64,000 bases of DNA from Methanocaldococcus sp. (GCF_024490875.1 NZ_JACCLX010000007.1:1-64000), one strand, 5' to 3'. Shown: positions 37,419 through 59,210, numbered from the stretch's first letter. Notes: generated from the sequence alone by a model not told the origin. Numbers and translations are program-made.

Positions 37419-40026
37419 GTGATAGTCATTCAAAAATCAGATCTTTCTTATGAAGACCTTGACAAATTTTTAAAAAGTATAAAATATTTAGAAAATAATA
37501 TCCGAGAAAATCCTGATAAGTTCAATATGGAGTTAAATAATGAATTGAGAGAGATTTACCATATACTATATTTAGTTAAAAAGCAGAATCCTCATATTAA
37601 CTTAAAATCTGAAATTAATAAAATATTAAACAATCCAAATTATGATGGAATTATAGGATATTTCATCCATAATAATAAAGCTATATTTTATGTAAAATAT
37701 GGAGATAAAATTTACATTCCACACTATAATGTCATATTTTTAGCATCAATGTTTTTAGAACATAATGTTAGTGTTGATAATGTCAAATTAAGTATCGCTA
37801 AAGAACAGCGCGGTACATTATACATAAGAGTTATTTCTCCAGAACTCAAAAAAAGGAATTTTTATTATTTATTTAATGGAAAATATACTGTAGATGATAA
37901 TGGCTACTTAATGGATGGACCTAGAAAAAAAGTTAAAAGTTTTTTAAATATTAAAATTCTGGGAATGGAAAATAACGACTCTATTATAAACAATAGTGAG
38001 GAAAACTCAAATCCTATAGGAATCGTTGCAAAACTTGCATGGTCATTTAATAGGTGGGAAGGATTAAGTCCAGATTTAAAGGAATTTAAGTTTAGAGATA
38101 GATATGGTTTTGAATTTGTAAAGAAATGGGGATATGCCCATGAATTTTGGAACTTTAATGAAGATTTTAATTCAAAGTATTATTATGGCTGTATGACAGG
38201 GAAAGTAAATAATTTTAGAGAAGGTCTAATTATATTCATATCAAAAAATATTGAAGATGGTAAGTGGTATTTTGTTGGATTATATGGTAAAGGCAAATAT
38301 TTAGAAACTCCTAAGGATACTGGAATAAAAATGTCAGATTTACTTCCAGAAAAAATAATAGAACATAATTAAAAATAATATTGAAAAGGCTGAAGGTAAT
38401 GAAAAAGAATATCTTGAAAGAGTGCTGAGTGGTGAGGAAACATATAAAGTAAAAATATGTGGGGAAAAGGAGTATTCTACAGTTTTTGATGAGGAAGGAT
38501 ATGTAGAAGTTCCTAACGATAGAATTTCAGTAGGAATGGCTGGATTTTCATACATTGGGGAAAATAATAATATAAAACCAGAAACAATAAAAGAAATTTT
38601 AATTAAAGCAAAAAATAAACATGAAGAATTATTAAAAAATGAAAATATAGATGAAAATAGAAAAAAAGAGTTAAAGGAAATTATTGAAAAGATAGATAAG
38701 GTTTTAAAATTATATTTTGGGGGTGATACTATTATAGACAAAATTTTAGATAAAAAAGGACAAATTATTCTTTATGGAGTTCCAGGAACTGGAAAAACAT
38801 ACTTAGCAAGGAAATATGTTGAAGAAAAAACTAACGATAATAAAAATAAATATGGATTCATTACATTTCATCAATCTTATTCCTATGAAGATTTTATTGA
38901 AGGCTTTAGACCAAAAACTAAGGATAATGGAAATGGTAATAATATCATTTATGAAGTTGAGGACGGGATATTTAAGAGAATGTGTATTTTGGCTATTTGG
39001 GAAGTTCTAAAGAAAAAAGAATACAATGAAAATATAATTGTCAGTAATATTGATTTTAGCACATTAATTGAAAAATTCAAAGAAAAATATCCTGTAGGAA
39101 GTACATTAAAAACAAAAACTGGAAAAGAGTTTGAAATATGTAGATATACTGATGCTACCATTTATGTAAAACCACTTAATGGAAATAATGAACAGGACCT
39201 ATCAATTTTAATTAATAAATTAAAGGAATTTTACAATAATAATCCCAACATAAAAAAACCTTCAGATATTAAATTTGCTCATCCATCATACTACTATGCA
39301 ATCTTAGAAGAATTAAGACAAATAGAGAATGAATTAAAAAATACTAAAAATGAAAACTTAACATACGACCAAATAAAACAAAAAGTAATCGAAGCTATTA
39401 AAAATAAATCTCTAACAAAAGAAGACTTTGAAAATGCACCAAAATACTACCTAATAATTGATGAAATAAACAGAGGAAACATATCAAACATTTTAGGAGA
39501 GTTAATCACACTTTTAGAAAAAGATAAAAGATTAGGGGAAGAGAACGAAATAATTACAACTTTACCATACTCAAAAGAGCCGTTTGCTGTTCCACCAAAC
39601 TTATACATAATTGGAACGATGAATACAGCAGATAGGAGTATTGCATTATTAGATATTGCTTTAAGAAGGAGATTTGGATTTATAGAAATTGAGCCAGATT
39701 ATGATGTCTTGAATGACAAAAATATTGATGAAATTAACTTAGCAGAGTTATTAAAAGCTTTAAATGATAAAATTGTTAAATTAAAAGATAGAGACCACAG
39801 AATAGGACATTCATATTTCTTAAATGTAAATAATAAAGATAATTTATGGTTTGTTTGGTATCATGAAATAATCCCATTGTTAGAAGAATACTTCTATGGG
39901 GACTTTGATAGTTTAAAAAAAGTTCTTGGAGAGAAATTTGTAGATGTTGATAATTGTGAAATTAAAAAACTTGAAGGAGATGAGTTTATCAATGCATTAA
40001 AAGAAATTATCCAAAATAACCAATAA
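37419..40026 (+). pseudogene. mcrB: McrB-type AAA+ restriction GTPase, probably frameshifted
   Basis: The first open frame (37419-38372, GTG start after GGTGAT) gives a 317-residue N-terminal domain of a kind found before McrB motors (SFNRWEGLSPDLKEF, WYFVGLYGKGKYL). A second frame, open from 38359 to 40026, carries the motor: Walker A LYGVPGTGKTYL, Walker B YYLIIDEINRGNISNI and the McrB signature GTMNTADRSIALLDIALRRRF. No ribosome site precedes any start codon of the second frame, so one gene with a +1 shift near 38360-38375 is the simplest reading. If the parts are made separately, the motor would begin near GTG 38422. McrB powers modification-dependent cleavage with McrC. Confidence 0.7.
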
Positions 40027-40036
40027 GGGGAGGGGA

Positions 40037-41398
40037 ATGAATAATACACTTACTTTTTATGAACATCAATCCATAAACTTTGAAGACTTGAAAGAAAAAT
40101 TAAATTTGAGTAAAAATAAGATTGTAGAACTATTTAAAACAATTAATAGAAAAAATAAATCAATTGTAAAAGATAATGAATATGAAGAGAATGAATATGA
40201 CAGTATTTTTAGAATTTATTATAATGAAATAAAAGCTAAACACTATGTTGGATTTGTAGCAGTTGATAACAAAGTTATCCAAATTCTACCAAAAGTTTTT
40301 AAAAATGAGGATTACTCTGACATAGAAAAAATCCTCGCCTTTGTAAAAATGATGAACTATGCATATAACTTAAACATCAAAGAGCAGGAATTGGCAAAAG
40401 TAAAAAATGAGGAATCAAAAACAACAATATTAGAAGTTTTTATTTATCTCTTTGCTTATTCATTGTTAAAAGAAATTGGGAGGGGATTTTATAGGGAGTA
40501 TGTGAGAGTTAGAGAAGAGAAAAAATTCTTAAAAGGGAAGTTATTGATAGATAAGCAAATAAGAAAACTTCCTCATCAAAGGCATAAATTTTCCATAGAA
40601 TATCATGTATTCACTGAAAACAATCTTCTAAATCAAATATTTTACTACACAACCTACATTTCAATGAAAAAAACAAAATGGCAAATAAATAAAAAACTCC
40701 TAAGTGAGTTAATGTTAATTTTTGATGGTATTAACTTAAGAAAAATAACTATTCATGATTTTAAGAAAGTGCATTTTATTCGACTGAATGAGAGGTTTAA
40801 AAAACCATTCAATTTAGCCAAAATAATCTTATCAACATTTGGAGAAGTTGAAGGAGAAGATGCGGTTGGATTCTTTGTAGATATGAACGATTTGTTTGAG
40901 AAGTTTATTTGTTCAATATTATCAAAGAATTTAGACTTTGAAATTAGATATCAAGATAGTTTTGATTTATTTAAAAAAGAAACATTAAAAGGATTAAAAA
41001 ATATACAACAAAAACCAGATTATGTTATTTATAAAAACAATAAACCATTGTTAGTTTTAGATGCAAAATATAAGGAAATTAAAAAAGAAAATGGAAAAAT
41101 AGACTTATCATCTGATATACTAAGGCAAGTTTATACTTATGCAAAATACTACTCTACAAATGATAAAAATGTCAATGCTGTCCTAATCTTCCCAAAATAT
41201 AAAAACTATAATAGTTTTAGAAGAGAAAATCCAATAATTGGTGAGGCTACATTCTTTGATAATGAGATAAAACTCTATGTATTAACTTACGATATGGAAA
41301 AGTTGATTACTGGGGATGGGATTGATGAGGAGTTTATAAATTGTCTTAATACACTAATAAATGAACAAAATTATTTAATTAATTTATCCAATATTTAA
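40037..41398 (+). CDS. mcrC: McrC, nuclease subunit of modification-dependent restriction
   Basis: A 453-residue protein. The N-terminal part has the McrC pattern (YNEIKAKHYVGFVAVDNKVIQILPKVF and YREYVRVREEKKFLKGKL). The C-terminal PD-(D/E)xK nuclease is visible as QQKPDYVIYKNNKPLLVLDAKYKEIK, with the aspartate and D-A-K core. GGGGAGGGG precedes the ATG. It is ten bases after mcrB and looks intact, but without a whole McrB it could not cleave DNA in the usual way. Confidence 0.9.
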   Translation: MNNTLTFYEHQSINFEDLKEKLNLSKNKIVELFKTINRKNKSIVKDNEYEENEYDSIFRIYYNEIKAKHYVGFVAVDNKVIQILPKVFKNEDYSDIEKILAFVKMMNYAYNLNIKEQELAKVKNEESKTTILEVFIYLFAYSLLKEIGRGFYREYVRVREEKKFLKGKLLIDKQIRKLPHQRHKFSIEYHVFTENNLLNQIFYYTTYISMKKTKWQINKKLLSELMLIFDGINLRKITIHDFKKVHFIRLNERFKKPFNLAKIILSTFGEVEGEDAVGFFVDMNDLFEKFICSILSKNLDFEIRYQDSFDLFKKETLKGLKNIQQKPDYVIYKNNKPLLVLDAKYKEIKKENGKIDLSSDILRQVYTYAKYYSTNDKNVNAVLIFPKYKNYNSFRRENPIIGEATFFDNEIKLYVLTYDMEKLITGDGIDEEFINCLNTLINEQNYLINLSNI

Positions 41399-41412: not shown

Positions 41413-44400
41413 ATGGAATTAAGAGTTAGAGATATGAGTAGGTTTAGGGAAGATTGGATAAAAAATAGCATACTTGGAAAAAGGCTTTCAGAAAAAGATT
41501 ATGATGAAGTGTCAAAGAATATAAGAGAATTTTTTCATATAGTTCATGGTGATAAAAGTAATATTGAAAGTTTTCTAAATAAAGAAATAAATTTAACTGG
41601 AGACTACCAAATAATCTATGAATTAATGCAAAATGCTGAGGATGCAGATGCAGATAAATTACTTGTGTATTATAATGATAAATATCTTCTTTTTGTTAAT
41701 AATGGAGAACCATTTTCAGATAGAAATATAAAATCAATATGTAATGTTGGGCAATCAACTAAAAGTTCTAATAATGAAAATAGTTTAATTAAACATAGAA
41801 AATATATTGGAAAGTTTGGAATTGGTTTCAAACTTGTATATCATTTATTGGGAGGAGTAGAACAAATAATGAAATATAAAGCACCAATAATTTTTAGTTG
41901 GGGTGATAAAAAAGAAATAGAAGATTTTTTAAATTGTGATAGTTTTGAATCTGCAGATGTTGAACATCCTGTATTGTTTAAGCCAATTTTAACGGCTGTT
42001 CCAGTAGGAATTAACGAAAAAGTTTATGATTTAGATGGAAATGAAAGAATATTATTTGAAGAAAAAGAAATTATTGAATTGAAAAAATTCATAGAAGAAA
42101 TGAATATTAATGATACATTAAAAAATTTTGAAAGAGGTAGTTTATTTTTCTTGGAATTAATAAATAAAGATAATTTTGAGGAAAATTTAAAGAAACAAAT
42201 AAATGAGATAGAAAATTCATTAATATTCTTAAGTAGCTTAAGGAAAGTAATAATAAATGGAATATCTTTTAAAAAACCAGAAGAAAATATAAAACACATA
42301 ATATTAAAAGAAAACAAAGAAAATAATGAAAAAGAGATTGTTTTTGCATACAGTCCATTTAACGATATTTTAAAAGATAGACCAAACTTTTATTGTTATT
42401 TCCCTATTGCAGATGAAAAACATGGATTAAACTTTATAATTAACTCTTCAAAATTTAAAATTGAAACATCAAGAAGGAAATTAAAAGGAAGTGGTAAAGA
42501 TAATATAAATATTAATATCCTTAAAGAATCTGTTAAATTAATAAAAAATAAATTGGAAGAAATAAAAGAAATTACTAAAAGAACTAAAAATATCAAAGAA
42601 TTTGAAGAGTTATTTTATGCAATATTAAGTAGTGATGAACCAAAAGATGAAAATGTCAAAAAGTTCGTGTATGATGAGTTAATGAGTTATATTAGTGAAA
42701 ATATCCCTTGTAAAGATAAAAATGGAGATATTTTATTTGAAAATAAAGATAAAGTTATAATTAAAAATACTGAGCTTAATATACATCCAAAAGATTTTGG
42801 AATTAATAAATATTGGCTATATGTTGATAATAAAAAACTTGAAAAACTTATTAGGAGTAAAAAATTCAAAAATAAAAAGTTTTTAAAAAATTATTCTATC
42901 GTTAGTTTATTGAAGGATAGTGAAGCAGATTTTGAGAAGATTAATGAATGGATTAAAAATCTTGATTATAGTATTTATCTTAAATTTCTTAATGAACTAA
43001 TCGAGAATTGGAGCGAAAATGATGAATTTTTAGACAAAATAAGAAAGTTAAAGTTTATATTAACAGAATCTGAAAATTTTGTATGTTTGGATGAGGGCGT
43101 ATATTTCCCTGTTAAAGATAGCGAAAATCTTAAAATTGAAAGATTTAATTTTATTAATAAAAGATTGTTGAAAGATGATAAAATCAAAAAATTCTTTGAA
43201 GAAAAACTTAAAATTAAAGAATTAAATGAAAAGATTATAATTTTAGAGGGAATTTTGCTAAAATATGAAAATGAAGTACCAGATGTTAGTTATGAAGAAA
43301 ATATTGAAGATTTAAGATATATTAAAGAAAATTTAAATAAGTTGAAAGGAAGTGAGAAAAAAGAGGTTTTGGATAAAATAAAAGAAAGTTATATTATTCA
43401 AGTTAGGGATAAAGATGGAAATATTAAATTTTCAAAACCTATAAATGCTTATATTCTAAAAAAGTATAGTGGCGATGATTCACTTGAAGTGTATTTTACT
43501 GGATATCCGCTGATTTCGTAATTGAAAATTATTTAGATAATGAAAAAGAAAGAAAAGAATGGTTCAAATTTTTAAAAGAGATTGGATGTAATGATAAACC
43601 AATTTTGAAGTATAAAATATGGGTTTGTGAAAAAAGGGGTTGTTGTTACGATTATAACTATATAATTAAAATGGAAACAGAAAAAAACCAATTTAGTGAA
43701 GTTATATATATTAGTAGTGAATGGGGCATAATACCTTTAATTGAATCTAGATTAAAAAGAAGATTATATGGAGATGAATATTCCAACCATTGTTATATTT
43801 TATGTGATTGGGAAATTGAAGGTCTTGAAAATGCATTAAATAATATAAAAAATGGACAAAATGCTTTTGAAATTTCTAAAAGTATATGGAAGTTTTTAAA
43901 AGACATTACATTAGAAAATGAAAATACATTAGAAAATGAAAAATTAAAGGGAATGTATCATTGGTTTTATCGTGGTCATAAAACAAAATCTTTTGATAGT
44001 TATATTTACACACTACTTAAAGAATCTGAATGGTTATATGATGAAAATAGAGTATTTAGGAAACCTACTGAGTTATTCTATCCAACAAATGAAAATAAAG
44101 AACTATTGGGAGATAATGTTAATTATCTACATTCAGATTTTGTTGATGAATATTCAAAATCCATTGCAGAAATTGTAGGAATTAAAATAAATGCTAATAT
44201 TTATGATATTTTGGACTATCTTAAAGGTTTAAGCGGAAATGATGTAGAATTCAATAAAATACTTAAAATTTATAAGTTTATTTATTCTGAAATCATAAAA
44301 AATAATAATATAGAGAAAGTAAAAGATTATTTCTCAAAGTATCCATTAATATATATCCCAAAATCCAAAAAATGGAGAAAAATTGATGAAGTATTTTGGG

Positions 44401-47400
44401 AAGATGAAAGCATTGTATTTGAAGATCTAAAAGACTATTTAGTCAAATACTATAAGGATGAAGAAATGAAACTATTCTTTGAAAAAATTGGAGTTAAAGT
44501 AAAAGCAAACATATCTGATTATATTAACGCTATAATAGATATTAGTGAGAATGTAGAAGCAATAAATGACAAAATTAAAAAAAGGATTCAAAGATTGTAT
44601 AAAAAAATTTGGGATGATTTAAAATTAGATGAAAACTTATGGATAGAGTATGAATCTGAACTCAATAAATTAAAAAATGGGCGATATTGGCTTGCTAATA
44701 AAAATGGGGAGTATAAATTTTATTATATTAATGAAATTGTTATAAACGACCATAAACATTATTATGAATTATTTAAAGACAAAGTACCATTTTGGGAATT
44801 TAATAAAGAATTTACAAAAGAATTTGGTGCGGAAAGTTTATCTGAGAGTATAAAAATATCGATAAAATATGGAAATAAAGAAAAGGAATTGAGTGTATGG
44901 ACTAACAAACTTAATGAAATCATGCCTGAGATTATAAAATTTATATTATCAAAAAATGAAGAAGATGAGGAACTTGAGGATATTCTTAAAAAACTACCAA
45001 AAATAAAGATTTGGAAAACTGATAAAATATTTGCAGAATATGAAATTAAAAATAAAACTGCTAATGATGAAATTGAAAGTTATTTAGACTTAGAAAATAG
45101 AACCCTTTATGTTTCAAGTGTTGAAGATATACCTGATTTAATTGGCGATGCTTTTGAAGAATACTTTATGAAATATAAAATTAATAATTTGAGAGAATTC
45201 ATAAAAGATTTAATGATTACAAAAAATAAAGAAAAAATATTAAAAAAATGGTGTAAAAGAGGCATTAACTTTGATATTGATGTTAAAAAATATTTTGAAA
45301 TAACTGATTATGAGGATACTAATGAAGAAAATGCCATTAATAACAATATTGACACTAATTTAAATGAAATAAATAAAGAAGATGAATCTAAAAATATCGA
45401 AAAAATTGAAGAAAGTAACAAAATAGATAATGGTAAGATAAAAGAATACGATAAGACTAATGAAATAAAAACAGATGACAAAAAGGATAATGATATAACT
45501 GAAATAAAAGATTTAGGAGATAATAAAAACAATCATGAAGGTATAAAACCTGATATTGGTGGATCTAATAAAATTTATAAAGAATATGATAATTATGATA
45601 AATTAATATCTAAAAGGAATGAAAAAATAAAGAAAACAGAAAGTTTAAAAGATAAAAAAAGATTAAAAAATAAAATTTCTGATAAGAAACAAAAAAGAGA
45701 AGAAAATTATATAAAAGATGATACAAACAGTGTCGAATGTTTAAAAAGCAATTATGAATGTAGAAAAATTACAAAAATACAAAAACCAATAAAATACTAT
45801 GAGAATGAGAGAAATGATTACATAAATAAATTAATAGAAAAATTAAATGAAACATTGGAAGAATTTTATTCATCAGAACCATATTCAGTAGATTGGTTTA
45901 AAAAACTTATAGAAATTGAATTAATGATGTCAAAAAGAAAATTTGTAAGTAATACATTAAAAATAACTTTCTATAAAGTTAAAAAAATATCTAACTATTT
46001 ATTGGAATTATCATTGTCAAATAAACCTGTCCCACAATTTATTGAGGATTTACCAAACATTAGAATTTATGATGAAAATAATAACCTAATTGAATTCTCT
46101 GCAATTTCAGTTGATAAAAACAAAGTAAGAATTAAAGTTAAATCAATTACCAGAGAACCCAAGAAAATAACCATTGAAATTGGGGATTTAAGCTATTTAT
46201 TAGAAACATTAAAAGAAATATATGATTCGTTATCTTATAATATTAAAGGAGAAATATTAAATAAACTTAACAAAATAAAAATCATATATGGACCACCGGG
46301 GACGGGGAAAACAACAAAAATTGTTGAAGATATTTTAAAAATTGAAGATTTAAAAAATAAGAAAATATTATTCCTTGCACCAACAAATAAAGCAGTGGAT
46401 GTATTTGTCCAGAAGATTAGAGATGTTTCCGAAGGAAAAATTGAACATTTAAAACAATATCAAAATAAAGCAGAAGAATTAATTAATAACAAATTGGTTG
46501 TAAGATACAAATCAACTTCAAATGAAAAAATTGAAGATTTAGCAAGTGAGAATATAAACAATGCAAGTATTGTAGCTACAACCATTGTAAAAATAAGTTA
46601 TGATGAAACATTACAGAATTACAATCCTAACATTTTAATTATTGATGAATGTTCAATGATTCCATTGCCTTATATAATATGTGCAATACTACATTATGAT
46701 AATGACAATTTAGAAAGTATATGGATTTCAGGAGACCCAAACCAAATACAACCAGTAGGGATGTCAGAATATTGGAGAGAATACAACATTTACAAAATGT
46801 TTAATGATTTATTGGAAATAGACATGCATAACATTACAGAAGATTATGAGACTCATTTTAGATGTGGCTATGTTAGATTAACAAAACAATATAGAAGCAT
46901 AACACCAATTGGAGAATTGTTTAGTAGATACACATATAATGGAATTCTAAAACACTATAGAGAATCTGAAAAACCAGATTACTTATCCAATATGACTAAT
47001 TCAAATATATGCGTCGTTAAGTGTGATATTAAAGAAGGTGAAAGGTTAAAAGATGTCTATAAAATTGAAAATTCACCAATAAATATTTACTCTGCAATAT
47101 TGGCAACAGAATTAGCCCTAAAGATAAAAGAAATATTTAAAAATCAAAGATTAAAAAAATCAATTGGTATAATTTCTCCATATAAATTTCAAAGCCATTT
47201 AATCGAAGGTTTAATTTCAAACCAAATAGAAGATGACGATATTGAAATTTATGCTTCAACTGTCCATAAATTCCAAGGAGAAGAGTGTGATATTATAATT
47301 GTTGTATTAAACCCACCAAATACTAACAATATTAACAATAATTCCCTTCTAAATAACAAAAACTTGCTAAATGTTGCCATTAGTAGGGCAAGAGACTATT

Positions 47401-47675
47401 TATTTATTCTACTCCCAAATGTCAATAACATTTCAGAAAATTTAATTAGATTGTATGGGTATATTAAACAGTTAGATGGTGGTGTTAAAATAATAGGTAG
47501 TGAAGAATTAGAAAAATCACTCCTCAATGGAAAAATAATAAAGAATATATCCTTTATTTCAACTCATGGAAAGATAAATACTTATGGAAAGGATATTGGT
47601 GTAAAATATGAAATAAAACTTGATGAAATAAATAATAAGAATCTAAATTCAATTGATGTATTTATTAATAAATGA
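41413..47675 (+). pseudogene. Giant GHKL ATPase (sacsin/NO VEIN-like) fused to SF1 helicase, one frameshift
   Basis: Read as one gene of about 2,087 codons. The first frame (41413-43521) has a GHKL ATPase: YELMQNAEDADADKL, NNGEPFSDRNIKSICNVGQS, KYIGKFGIGFK. At about 43500 the frame must slip by -1. The new frame reads ISADFVIENYLDNEKERKEW and continues to 47675. Later come a charged linker (codons from about 45300 to 45760) and an Upf1-like SF1 helicase with [11 protein letters not shown] near 46287, LIIDECSMIP, SGDPNQIQPV, TKQYRS, VHKFQGEECD and NVAISRARDY. It overlaps the next gene by four bases. Likely a DNA-acting defence protein linked to McrBC; the fusion is inferred. Confidence 0.7.
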
Positions 47676-50600
47676 ATAATGAAATTAAAATTACAATTTT
47701 TGGGAGGGGTAGTATGCATCTCACCACATTAATAGCATGGCATGATAGTGGATGGAATGGAAAAATCTGTAGAAATCCTGAAAAGAATAAATATTGTGAG
47801 AGTTTTAGACATATTAAAAAAGGAAAATTTGGATTGCAATATGGTAAAAATCCAATTGAAGAAATTAAATGCGAAAATAATGCTGGAAAAATAGCAAATG
47901 AAGTTGAATATAATGGTAAAAAATGGGACGCATGTGGTAATGAAATAAATTTATTCTATCAATACAAATTTAACAGCATGGTTTATGGATGGACTACAAT
48001 TAAAGAGGAAAATAATAAGAAAATTGATGTATTAAAAGATATTTTTTTAGATTACTGGTTTAATTTCTACTACAACGATGATGCATTATGCTTTTTGTAT
48101 TGTAGAGAAAACCCTGTTGTTGATGATAGATTTTTAGTAGCATGTGTTAAGCCAAAAGATAAAAAATTAGTAATTGAATGCTCAGTTAAAGATAATAATG
48201 GAAATTATCAAAAATATCTAATATCTATCGAAGATAAAGATTTTAATAAACTAAATGATGTTAATTTTTATAAATCACTCTTTAAAAATTTAAATTATGG
48301 AAAAATATATCCATATATCTCTATTGAATTTGATCCAGAGGATATTATATTTATCATCCCATACCAAGAACTGGGAGAATACTTTGGATATGAGAATATT
48401 CCTGAAGATTTAATATTAAATATTCCAAATGAAATGAAAAAATCATTTTTATATACCACAAACTTCCTACCAAATGAATTCTCATGTATTATCTTAGAAA
48501 AAGCGTTAGAAATTATAAAAAATATCAAAAATTTAATGGAAGAACATTAAGGGCTAAAAGGTAAGTTAAAAGAGTTTAGGAAGGTAGAAATTGAAAAATA
48601 TGAAGAAAGAATTAAAAAGCAATTAGATGAATTAAAAAAATTAAAATTTAAGTATCCTTCTCTACCTTCAGTTTTGAGATTTTGTGGAGTAGAAGATGCT
48701 ATTTCCATGTATATTGATGCAGTTAAAAATGGAAAAGAAGAGGAGATGTATAAGGAAGTTAAAGAATCTTTAGAAGAAAACAAACCTAACCCTAAGTGGA
48801 AAATTGATAGAAATGTTTTAAATAATTTTAATAAACTATCAAAGCCAGAACAGAATTTTTTAATAAACTATATCCCATACTATTCATTAACTAAATCACA
48901 AATTGAAGAAATTTTTAAACAGTATAATAAGAAAAAATTTATTAATATAAATAAAGTTTTAGAAAATCCATATTTACTTTATGAAGAGTTAAAGCCAAAA
49001 GAACAATTGTTTTTAGATATAAGCTTTTGGGAACTTGATAGTTGGGAAAAGAGAAGATTGAAAGATAATTTTGATATTACAAATAAGCATAGAATAAGAG
49101 CTTTACTTATTGCTATATTAAAAAAAGCGTTGTCTGATGGGTATACTGTTCTACCATTACCCCCAAATGATTTACCTTCTGTTAAAAAGGATTTGAAATA
49201 TTATTATAACGAAATAAACAAATATGTTCCTGAAGAAGTTAGATTTGATTTTGATAGATTTTTGGAGTTGATTGATGAACATATAGATTACATTAAAGAA
49301 AAAATTTGGATAGGAGAGACAACATTTAAAGATGAACTTGATAGACCCTATAACCTAAAATTATTTGCATTAAAAGATATTAGAGAAAAGGAAACGTATA
49401 TTGAAGATAGGATTAATGAAATGTTAGAAAAATCTTGGAATGTTGAAATCAGTGAAGAAGAGATAAAAGAAAAATTAAAAGATAAAAAACCTATTAATAT
49501 ACCTGAAGAGCTATATAAAAAAGCTCTTGAAGACCAAACAAATGCTATAAAATTATTATTAGAAAATGGATGCTCCATATTAACAGGTCCAGCAGGTACT
49601 GGAAAGACATCCGTTATTAGAGTGTTATTAGAGATTATCTGTGAGAAAGAAAAACCAAATAATATTGTAATTTTAACCCCCACAGGAAAAGCAGGAGTTA
49701 GAATTAAAAAGGCACTTGAAGATATTGCAGATAAGTATGAATGTATAAAAAGCCCAACAACAATTCATAGATTTATAAAAGAATGTGGTAGATTTGATTG
49801 GGAGTATAAGGAGTTTGAAATAACTACTAAAAAAGATGTAGATGTCTTAATAATAGATGAGGCATCAATAGTAGGAACTGAAATGCTTTACAATCTATTA
49901 AAATGTATAAATTTAGGGAAATTAAAAAGGATTATATTTATAGGGGATGTAAATCAACTTCCACCTGTAGAGCCAGGAAAACCATTCTTTGATTTATATC
50001 AATACTTAAAAAGAAAAGAAAATAAAGATAAACAATACATTGCTGAACTTAAAATTTGTTTAAGAGCAGAGTCAAAGAGAATAGTTGAATTCTCTGAATT
50101 ATTCTTAAATGTTAACAAAGAGAGCAAATACAAAATTATTAAGGAATTAAAATTATCTGAGGAGGTAATGAGTGGATTTACAAAATATTCCCTTAAAGAT
50201 GAAAATGGAATAGAGAGAATAATTGTTTTAGTTTGGAAAGATAATCCACAAAAGGCATTAGAATATGCCATTGATGAAATAATAAAAGATAATAATGGAA
50301 ATCCAGAGAATTATAGGGATTTCTTTAAATGTTTTGTATATGATGATAAGGTTCAAATTTTAACTTACACAAAAAATAGAGGTTTCTTAAGTTCTTATTG
50401 GATTAATCAGTGGATTAGAGATGATTCAAAATATATAAATGAATCTATTAGAAATAATTTTATAAGGTTTAAATTTACTTGTGGTTGGGGCTATGCTGAC
50501 AAAGTAATACAAACAGAGAATATTTGGAATTTAGATGTTTGGGATTATAAAAGAAACAAACCTATATACAATCATGGAGTTTTTAATGGAATGATGGGAT

Positions 50601-51349
50601 ATATTGATAAAACATCTCAAAATAGGACATTTGTTGTGAAATTCTATTTCCCACAAGTTCAGGTATTTTTAGAAAAATTAAAGAATACACTAGAACATGC
50701 TTATGCAATAACTACGCATAAATCACAGGGTAGTGAGTTTGAAAATGTTATATTTGTTCTACCAAAATATAGCAACATCTCAAAAGAACTTATATACACT
50801 GCTATAACAAGGGCTAAAAAGAAACTATATATTATTACAGATAGTTTAGATACTTTATTTAATGCTGGAAAATATTCTGAAGTTATTGGAAGATATTCAA
50901 TATTGTTTAATTCACCAATAGACCCAAGACATTACCCAGAACATTTGAAGGTTATTACTTTAAAAGGTGATATTGTTAGAAGTTGGCAGGAGTGTTTAAT
51001 TGCCAATCTGCTGTATTATGAAAATATTAACTATGAGTACGAAGTTCCTTATGGTGATATGCTTCCAGATTTTAGGTTAAATTCTAATTATGAAAATAAA
51101 ATAATACTTTGGGAGCATTTAGGAATGTTGAATAATGAGGATTATAATAAAACTGCAGAATAGAAACTAAAAGTATATGAAAATGAAGGATTTTGTAGAA
51201 TATACATTAAAGATTTAGATAAAGAATGTTTTGAGAAGATATTTGAAGAAAATGACAAGATATTAATCATATCTACTACTGAAGATGTTAGGAATTCGAA
51301 AGAACTATACAATAAAATTAAAATCCTAAAGGAATGTTTAACCTTATAA
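47672..51349 (+). pseudogene. RecD-like SF1 helicase gene with two in-frame stops
   Basis: The N-terminal domain (HLTTLIAWHDSGWNGKICRNP and conserved cysteines) runs to a TAA at 48548-48550. The same frame then continues without a usable start to a TAG at 51161-51163, and again for 61 codons to a TAA at 51347-51349. The middle part is a RecD-like helicase: LTGPAGTGKTSVIRVLL, VLIIDEASIVGTEM, FIGDVNQLPPVEPGKP, TTHKSQGSEFENVIFVLP, YTAITRAKKKLYII. The final segment (WEHLGMLNNEDYNK before and KLKVYENEGF after the TAG) reads like one continuous domain. So it is probably a single gene inactivated by nonsense changes. Confidence 0.7.
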
Positions 51350-51393: not shown

Positions 51394-51535
51394 ATGAAAA
51401 TAACCATTTACGATGGGGCAAATAATAGAAGAGAATGGAAATGGATTATTCTTAGATTTTGGTATGAATTTTGCTAAATATTCCAAATATTATGAAGAAT
51501 ATCTTAGTGAGAGAACTGTAAGGGGAGAGCTTTAA
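51394..51535 (+). pseudogene. Remnant of an MBL-fold (RNase J-like) gene
   Basis: After GAGGGG and an ATG the codons read MKITIYDGAN, the start of an archaeal RNase J-like metallo-beta-lactamase. A short deletion follows, and another frame (from 51425) reads LFLDFGMNFAKYSKYYEEYL and SERTVRGEL before a TAA at 51533-51535. Only about 45 codons of an expected several-hundred-residue protein remain. The zinc-binding HxHxDH motif is gone. It follows the RecD-like gene, suggesting a former operon member. Confidence 0.65.

Positions 51536-55063: not shown

Positions 55064-59210
<4,147 letters not shown>

What the first reader, a model, noticed from the sequence alone, without database searches (positions are those of the whole stretch)
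41413..47675. Giant GHKL ATPase-SF1 helicase linked to McrBC, possible new defence component
The joined protein would have a sacsin/NO VEIN-like GHKL ATPase, a long middle region, a charged linker and an Upf1-like helicase. It directly follows mcrBC and overlaps a RecD-like helicase gene. I know of no named system with mcrB, mcrC, GHKL-helicase, RecD-like and an MBL nuclease together. A -1 shift at about 43500 splits it here, so relatives would be needed for a working copy.
Basis: partly seen in the sequence, partly recalled or inferred. Interest (0 to 1): 0.65.

Follow-up and report, generated by a model that had tools for sequence, protein, structure and literature searches.

The report
Broken helicase-nuclease cassette inside McrBC operon
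A methane-making archaeon carries, inserted into an old restriction-enzyme operon, the broken remains of a two-gene defence cassette (a giant Hsp90-like ATPase fused to a helicase, plus a helicase-nuclease), intact relatives of which turn up inside or beside unrelated restriction operons in many bacteria.

Summary
The giant GHKL ATPase–SF1 helicase gene is real, and a −1 frameshift splits it. It is not part of a conserved five-gene McrBC system. Closely related Methanocaldococcus genomes carry mcrB–mcrC–MBL at this site with no insert. Here the GHKL-helicase gene and a RecD-like gene sit between mcrC and a 130-bp MBL remnant. None of 44 GHKL-helicase relatives has McrBC nearby. Intact single-ORF relatives (1,564–2,645 aa) occur in bacteria: some alone, some in type I or type III restriction operons, seven with the same RecD-like gene. 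The N-terminal half belongs to the Tiamat (TmtA) profile family. The helicase resembles Mokosh MkoA. No PADLOC TmtA profile covers the helicase. The RecD-like partner is PADLOC's unvalidated candidate PDC-S68: a Cys-rich N-terminus, a RecD2-like helicase, and a C-terminal PD-(D/E)xK-like motif. In an unbiased Bacteroidia sample, 4 of 8 S68 genes lie in hsd operons and 2 of 8 touch the GHKL gene. The window copy is decayed: mcrB frameshift, GHKL-helicase frameshift, two S68 stop codons, MBL truncated. Best reading: an autonomous embedded defence cassette that moved into a type IV operon and died. This is a new variant of a known kind. Function is inferred; no assay exists.

The parts
37419..38372 (+). 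5' fragment of mcrB (N-terminal recognition region), cut by a frameshift
   Evidence: 62% identical to residues 180-301 of the intact 847-aa McrB of G007; the next frame continues at residue 305
38422..40026 (+). 3' part of mcrB (AAA/GTPase domain)
   Evidence: AAA_5 8e-18; NF008457 McrB 7.6e-45
40037..41398 (+). mcrC, intact
   Evidence: PF10117 McrBC 1.1e-62; 75-76% identical to G007/G008 McrC
41413..43521 (+). N-terminal half of the giant protein: sacsin/Hsp90-like GHKL ATPase and start of the middle region
   Evidence: PF25794, NF047352, TmtA PDLC03970 2.5e-120
43485..43518 (+). zone of the -1 frameshift joining the two halves
   Evidence: overlap of the two open frames; 33 relatives have one ORF
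43527..47675 (+). C-terminal half: middle region, charged linker (about 45282-45806), SF1 Upf1/MkoA-like helicase (about 46269-47411)
   Evidence: AAA_11/AAA_12, MkoA PDLC03920 8e-36, TmtA PDLC03969 over the middle region
47714..51349 (+). PDC-S68-type gene: Cys-rich N-terminus, RecD2-like helicase, C-terminal PD-(D/E)xK-like motif; broken by in-frame TAA (48548-48550) and TAG (51161-51163)
   Evidence: PDLC05065 3.8e-119; 80% aa identity to intact G006 protein; stops confirmed
51394..51525 (+). remnant of the MBL (RNase J-like beta-CASP) gene that directly follows mcrC in related genomes
   Evidence: 88% DNA identity over 101 bp to the start of the 510-aa G007 gene

Best explanation
The 10-kb segment 41413-51349 is a decayed two-gene defence cassette that entered a native mcrB-mcrC-MBL type IV restriction operon between mcrC and MBL. 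Gene 1 is a Tiamat-family (TmtA-like) GHKL ATPase whose C-terminus is a Upf1/MkoA-type SF1 helicase. Gene 2 is a PDC-S68 protein: a RecD2-like 5'-3' helicase with a probable PD-(D/E)xK nuclease at its end. In intact relatives the likely working is as follows: the Hsp90/sacsin-like ATPase acts as an ATP-gated dimer clamp or sensor on an aberrant nucleic acid or nucleoprotein; the helicase translocates; S68 unwinds and cuts invading DNA. The cassette is probably autonomous, and the restriction operon around it is interchangeable. Shown: gene identities, the insertion, the lesions, and recurrence with type I and type III operons. Inferred: defence function, the clamp model, and nuclease activity.
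For: Empty-site comparison: G007 and G012 have mcrB-mcrC-MBL at this locus with no insert, and the GHKL-helicase is absent from the 13 other genomes of the genus. Relatives: about 44 GHKL-helicase loci with single-ORF proteins. Restriction context: HsdM-HsdS-S68-GHKLhelicase-HsdR with near-zero gaps in Hyunsoonleella (L045/L127); Mod-Res-GHKLhelicase in L015, L016, L055, L091, L092; HsdM beside it in L049 and L126. Pairing: S68 lies near 7 of 43 GHKL-helicase genes against under 1% expected, and next to helicase-less TmtA-like genes in L059, L062 and L064. In an unbiased Bacteroidia sample, 4 of 8 S68 genes are in hsd operons versus 0 of 21 generic helicases (Fisher p = 0.003). Folds: S68 matches RecD2; the GHKL part matches Hsp90 and sacsin SR1. 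Lesions.
Against: Most GHKL-helicase genes lie outside restriction operons in the DNA available, and many S68 genes stand alone, including the one in G004 (M. jannaschii by its size). In the window the two genes may have arrived separately: the S68 is close kin of a solitary S68 elsewhere in G006, while the GHKL-helicase has no kin in the genus. The seeds used to detect restriction genes came partly from the same loci. No phage-protection data exist. The nuclease is read from a sequence motif, and the structure search returned only the helicase. The window's helicase sits on a long, unresolved tree branch.
Confidence: 0.72

Rival explanations
1. The GHKL-helicase and S68 are working accessories of the restriction enzyme beside them: they extend or finish the cutting of DNA that a type I, III or IV system has marked or opened, as RecBCD does after a cut.
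For: Direct adjacency or overlap inside hsd operons, with S68 between HsdS and HsdR in G394, G683 and G575. Also S68-mcrB-mcrC-MBL in G035 and type III operons. Both proteins are nucleic-acid translocases.
Against: The same proteins occur without any restriction genes. Partners span unrelated restriction types. Embedding of autonomous systems between hsdS and hsdR is documented, e.g. DarTG2 (PMC12255303).
Confidence: 0.2
2. The five genes are one functional McrBC-linked system, broken here only by sequencing errors.
For: Same strand and short gaps, with catalytic motifs still readable in both halves. Frameshifts are a common draft-assembly error.
Against: No McrBC near any GHKL-helicase relative. 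Empty site in relatives. Two of the lesions are substitutions that create stops and the MBL gene is truncated, which homopolymer errors do not explain.
Confidence: 0.05
3. The -1 shift is a programmed frameshift that makes a GHKL-only and a full-length product.
For: An A AAA AAG heptamer lies about 50 bp upstream of the stop.
Against: The -1 frame after that heptamer meets a stop at once and only opens at 43485. Relatives have one uninterrupted ORF. Neighbouring genes carry other lesions.
Confidence: 0.02

Closest known systems
Tiamat (TmtA, PADLOC PDLC03964-03972; Millman et al. 2022)
   Same: Sacsin-like GHKL ATPase and long middle region; the N-terminal half scores 2.5e-120 to PDLC03970, and 34% identity over 544 residues to a helicase-less TmtA-type protein
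   Different: No PADLOC TmtA profile covers the SF1 helicase. The TmtA-type protein in L123 is 1,574 aa and ends without a helicase
Mokosh (MkoA, PADLOC PDLC03920)
   Same: SF1 Upf1-like helicase domain, 8e-36
   Different: Only the helicase core matches; no MkoB, no NERD or PLD domain found; GHKL domain added
PDC-S68 (PADLOC candidate from the guilt-by-embedding screen, Payne et al. 2024; MJ1519 of M. jannaschii, name from memory)
   Same: Full-length match of the partner gene, 3.8e-119
   Different: Known only as a single-gene candidate; here and in several bacteria it adjoins a GHKL/TmtA-like gene. The copy in the window is broken
CoCoNuT types II/III (McrBC with CnuH Upf1-like helicase; PMC11090510)
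   Same: McrBC beside a Upf1-like SF1 helicase
   Different: No GHKL domain is mentioned in that paper; no CnuE effector here; McrBC association not conserved
DarTG2 embedded between hsdS and hsdR (PMC12255303)
   Same: A defence module embedded in a restriction operon
   Different: Different genes; the window's host operon is type IV

Membership tests
Tiamat (TmtA) | GHKL N-terminus matching TmtA profiles | tested here: met
   PDLC03970 2.5e-120; SACS and P_loop_sacsin above curated cut-offs
Tiamat (TmtA) | Whole-length TmtA architecture without an added helicase | tested here: not met
   C-terminal 380 residues are an SF1 helicase that no TmtA profile covers
Mokosh type I | MkoA helicase plus MkoB, NERD/PLD domains | tested here: not met
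   Only the helicase core matches MkoA; neighbours are McrC and PDC-S68
PDC-S68 | Full-length profile match, about 1,200 aa | tested here: met
   PDLC05065, positions 343-1169 in one ORF and the N-terminus in the other; 4-1219 in intact relatives
PDC-S68 | Anti-phage activity | not testable with these tools
   Candidate only; [quoted passage not shown]
McrBC type IV restriction | McrB AAA GTPase plus McrC nuclease | tested here: met
   PF10117 and McrB model; mcrB broken here, intact in G007
CoCoNuT type II/III | CnuH helicase with CnuE effector and coiled-coil McrBC | tested here: not met
   No effector gene between or beside; GHKL fusion instead; the deletion in the McrB GTPase signature that marks CoCoNuTs was not examined
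RecD2 helicase (partner gene) | SF1B RecD fold | tested here: met
   Foldseek to RecD2 3gpl, E 2e-25, TM-score 0.73 by target length
PD-(D/E)xK nuclease (C-terminus of partner) | Acidic-E/H...K catalytic motif | tested here: inconclusive
   Conserved RSKSE...PDFT...EHxG...K pattern in 13 S68 proteins; no nuclease returned by the structure search

The most novel reading that the evidence does not exclude
A GHKL ATPase (with or without a fused SF1 helicase) and S68 form a portable two-component effector that plugs into type I, III and IV restriction enzymes alike and turns their DNA recognition or first cut into processive destruction.
Probability: 0.17. Interest if true: 0.78.

Novelty: new variant of a known kind. 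Interest (0 to 1): 0.46.

Why it matters
It links three separately catalogued items: Tiamat, the Mokosh helicase, and the unvalidated candidate PDC-S68. It shows that S68 repeatedly sits beside a sacsin/Hsp90-like ATPase, so S68 may not be a true single-gene system. It adds an apparent case of a defence cassette embedded in a type IV operon to those known in type I and Hma operons. It also shows by synteny that the Methanocaldococcus copy is dead, so tests should use the bacterial relatives.

Tried and rejected
A conserved five-gene McrBC system: rejected. Programmed frameshift at the A AAA AAG site: rejected because the -1 frame is closed there. Overlap of helicase and RecD-like genes: rejected, the homologous start is 47714. 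The upstream 317-aa ORF as a separate gene: rejected, it is the mcrB 5' part. NO VEIN (DUF3883) domain in the giant protein: not found by Pfam; the C-terminus of the helicase-less TmtA in L123 looks nuclease-like by eye, but Pfam gave no hit. Sister clade of the window helicase: unresolved, long branch. Hidden nuclease in the GHKL/middle part: the fold search gave only Hsp90, gyrase B and sacsin ATPases. Clostridia S68 survey: one hit, the known one. Literature: searches found no paper on a GHKL-helicase/McrBC system, and MJ1519 / PDC-S68 gave none.

Full report
WHAT IS IN THE SEQUENCE. The window lies in a 1.47-Mb draft genome (44 contigs) that I take to be Methanocaldococcus from the matching genus set and gene content. 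The ORF at 41413-43521 encodes a sacsin/Hsp90-like GHKL ATPase (PF25794, NF047352, and PADLOC TmtA PDLC03970 at 2.5e-120). The frame that runs from 43485 to 47675 encodes the rest: a middle region co-linear with TmtA profiles, a linker of about 60% K/E/D/N, and an SF1 helicase related to Upf1 and MkoA. The two frames overlap only at about 43485-43518, so the shift lies there. The helicase frame has no ATG near its start, and at least 33 relatives of 1,564-2,645 aa carry both halves in one ORF, so this is a broken gene and not two genes. A programmed shift is unlikely: the only classical slippery heptamer lies where the -1 frame is closed.

THE NEIGHBOURS ARE BROKEN TOO. mcrB is split: the upstream 317-aa ORF and the 534-aa ORF align back to back (residues to 301, then from 305) on the intact 847-aa McrB of G007. 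mcrC is intact. The RecD-like gene is one gene with two in-frame stops (one search reports 1 TAG and 1 TAA). Its intact counterpart in G006 is 80% identical in protein and about 88% in DNA, and has glutamate at both places. After it comes a remnant of about 130 bp of an MBL gene. Substitution stops and a truncated gene argue against simple indel errors, though I could not see reads.

IT IS AN INSERTION. In G007 and G012 of the same genus the same locus reads mcrB-mcrC-MBL (the MBL is an RNase J-like beta-CASP protein), with the same upstream genes as the window. In G007 the MBL ATG overlaps the mcrC stop. The GHKL-helicase is absent from the 13 other genomes of the genus. In G035, another genus of the order, the order is S68-mcrB-mcrC-MBL near the same GATase gene. 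In G004 (1.66 Mb, presumably M. jannaschii) S68 stands alone between the GATase gene and the same downstream oxidoreductase. The site is therefore a defence hot spot. The GHKL-helicase is a foreign arrival, and S68 is a gene that circulates in the order.

RELATIVES. A genome-wide scan with the helicase region, a viral-contig scan and plasmid searches gave about 44 loci. phmmer with the window's McrB and McrC found neither in any of them. Contexts vary. In Hyunsoonleella the pair is embedded as HsdM-HsdS-S68-GHKLhelicase-HsdR with gaps of -4 to +9 bp. Mod-Res-GHKLhelicase occurs in L015, L016, L055, L091 and L092. HsdM lies beside it in L049 and L126, with HsdR near L126. An Eco57I-type enzyme lies beside L038 and a Qat system beside L124. 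Many others stand alone. Restriction genes were found in 9 of 43 non-redundant loci against 0 of 21 loci of generic helicases from the same scan (p = 0.02). The seeds came partly from these loci, so this is only indicative, and contig ends hide neighbours.

THE PARTNER. S68 lies near 7 of 43 GHKL-helicase genes (L030, L031, L045, L054, L060, L067 and the Hymenobacter plasmid), where chance would give under 1% per locus. In L059, L062 and L064 it follows a TmtA-like GHKL gene without a helicase by 10 bp, behind a DrmD-like SNF2 gene. An unbiased scan of 395 Bacteroidia genomes found 8 S68 genes. Four are in hsd operons (G394, G618, G683, G575), and two of these also touch the GHKL gene (G394, G618). 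The model of an intact S68 (pLDDT 76) matches RecD2. Its C-terminal RSKSE...PDFT...EHxG...K pattern looks like a PD-(D/E)xK nuclease, but no structure match confirms it. The second stop in the window falls just before the conserved lysine.

HOW IT MOST LIKELY WORKS. The GHKL/middle model (pLDDT 80) matches Hsp90, gyrase B and sacsin SR1, so ATP-driven dimer clamping is the natural reading. A Upf1-like motor is fused to it, and S68 adds a RecD2-like motor and a probable nuclease. I propose a sensor/clamp-translocase plus helicase-nuclease that attacks invading DNA. Because the pair, or either gene, occurs with type I, III and IV restriction and also alone, I favour an autonomous cassette embedded in restriction operons over an obligate restriction cofactor. 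Embedding between hsdS and hsdR is known for DarTG2 (PMC12255303), and PDCs were collected by exactly such 'guilt-by-embedding' (PMC12988326, PMC10855318). No step of the mechanism has been shown experimentally.

NOVELTY. Each piece falls in a known profile family. The fused GHKL-SF1 architecture is not covered by PADLOC's TmtA profiles, NCBIfam names only its domains, and I found no paper describing it or its pairing with S68; the library lacks most subscription papers. I rate it a new variant of a known kind.

Noticed in passing
G004 locus L167:7090-10617: Intact S68 homologue in the genome that by size is M. jannaschii sits alone at the same chromosomal site where other species keep mcrBC; this site looks like a defence hot spot of the order.
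   Followed up: partly
L169 (G035): S68-mcrB-mcrC-MBL in a second genus of the order, with S68 upstream instead of downstream of mcrBC.
   Followed up: partly
L133:12541-14073 and L141:9604-11157: An RNase J-like beta-CASP MBL protein is a constant third gene after mcrC in Methanococcales; a possible component of their type IV system.
   Followed up: no
L059, L062, L064: Three-gene unit: DrmD-like SNF2 helicase, TmtA-like GHKL ATPase, S68.
   Followed up: partly
L156:12002-13666: A GmrSD-type gene sits with S68 between HsdS and HsdR, a double embedding.
   Followed up: no
L150 and L154: S68 beside a DarT-domain protein (L150), and a broken S68 beside a Piwi-domain protein and an SF1 helicase (L154).
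   Followed up: no
L054, L055: The GHKL-helicase gene is also split in Siphonobacter (two ORFs) and in a Clostridia genome (three ORFs), so inactivation seems recurrent.
   Followed up: no
window 55644-59210 (-): Phosphoenolpyruvate synthase ORF with an apparent intein.
   Followed up: no
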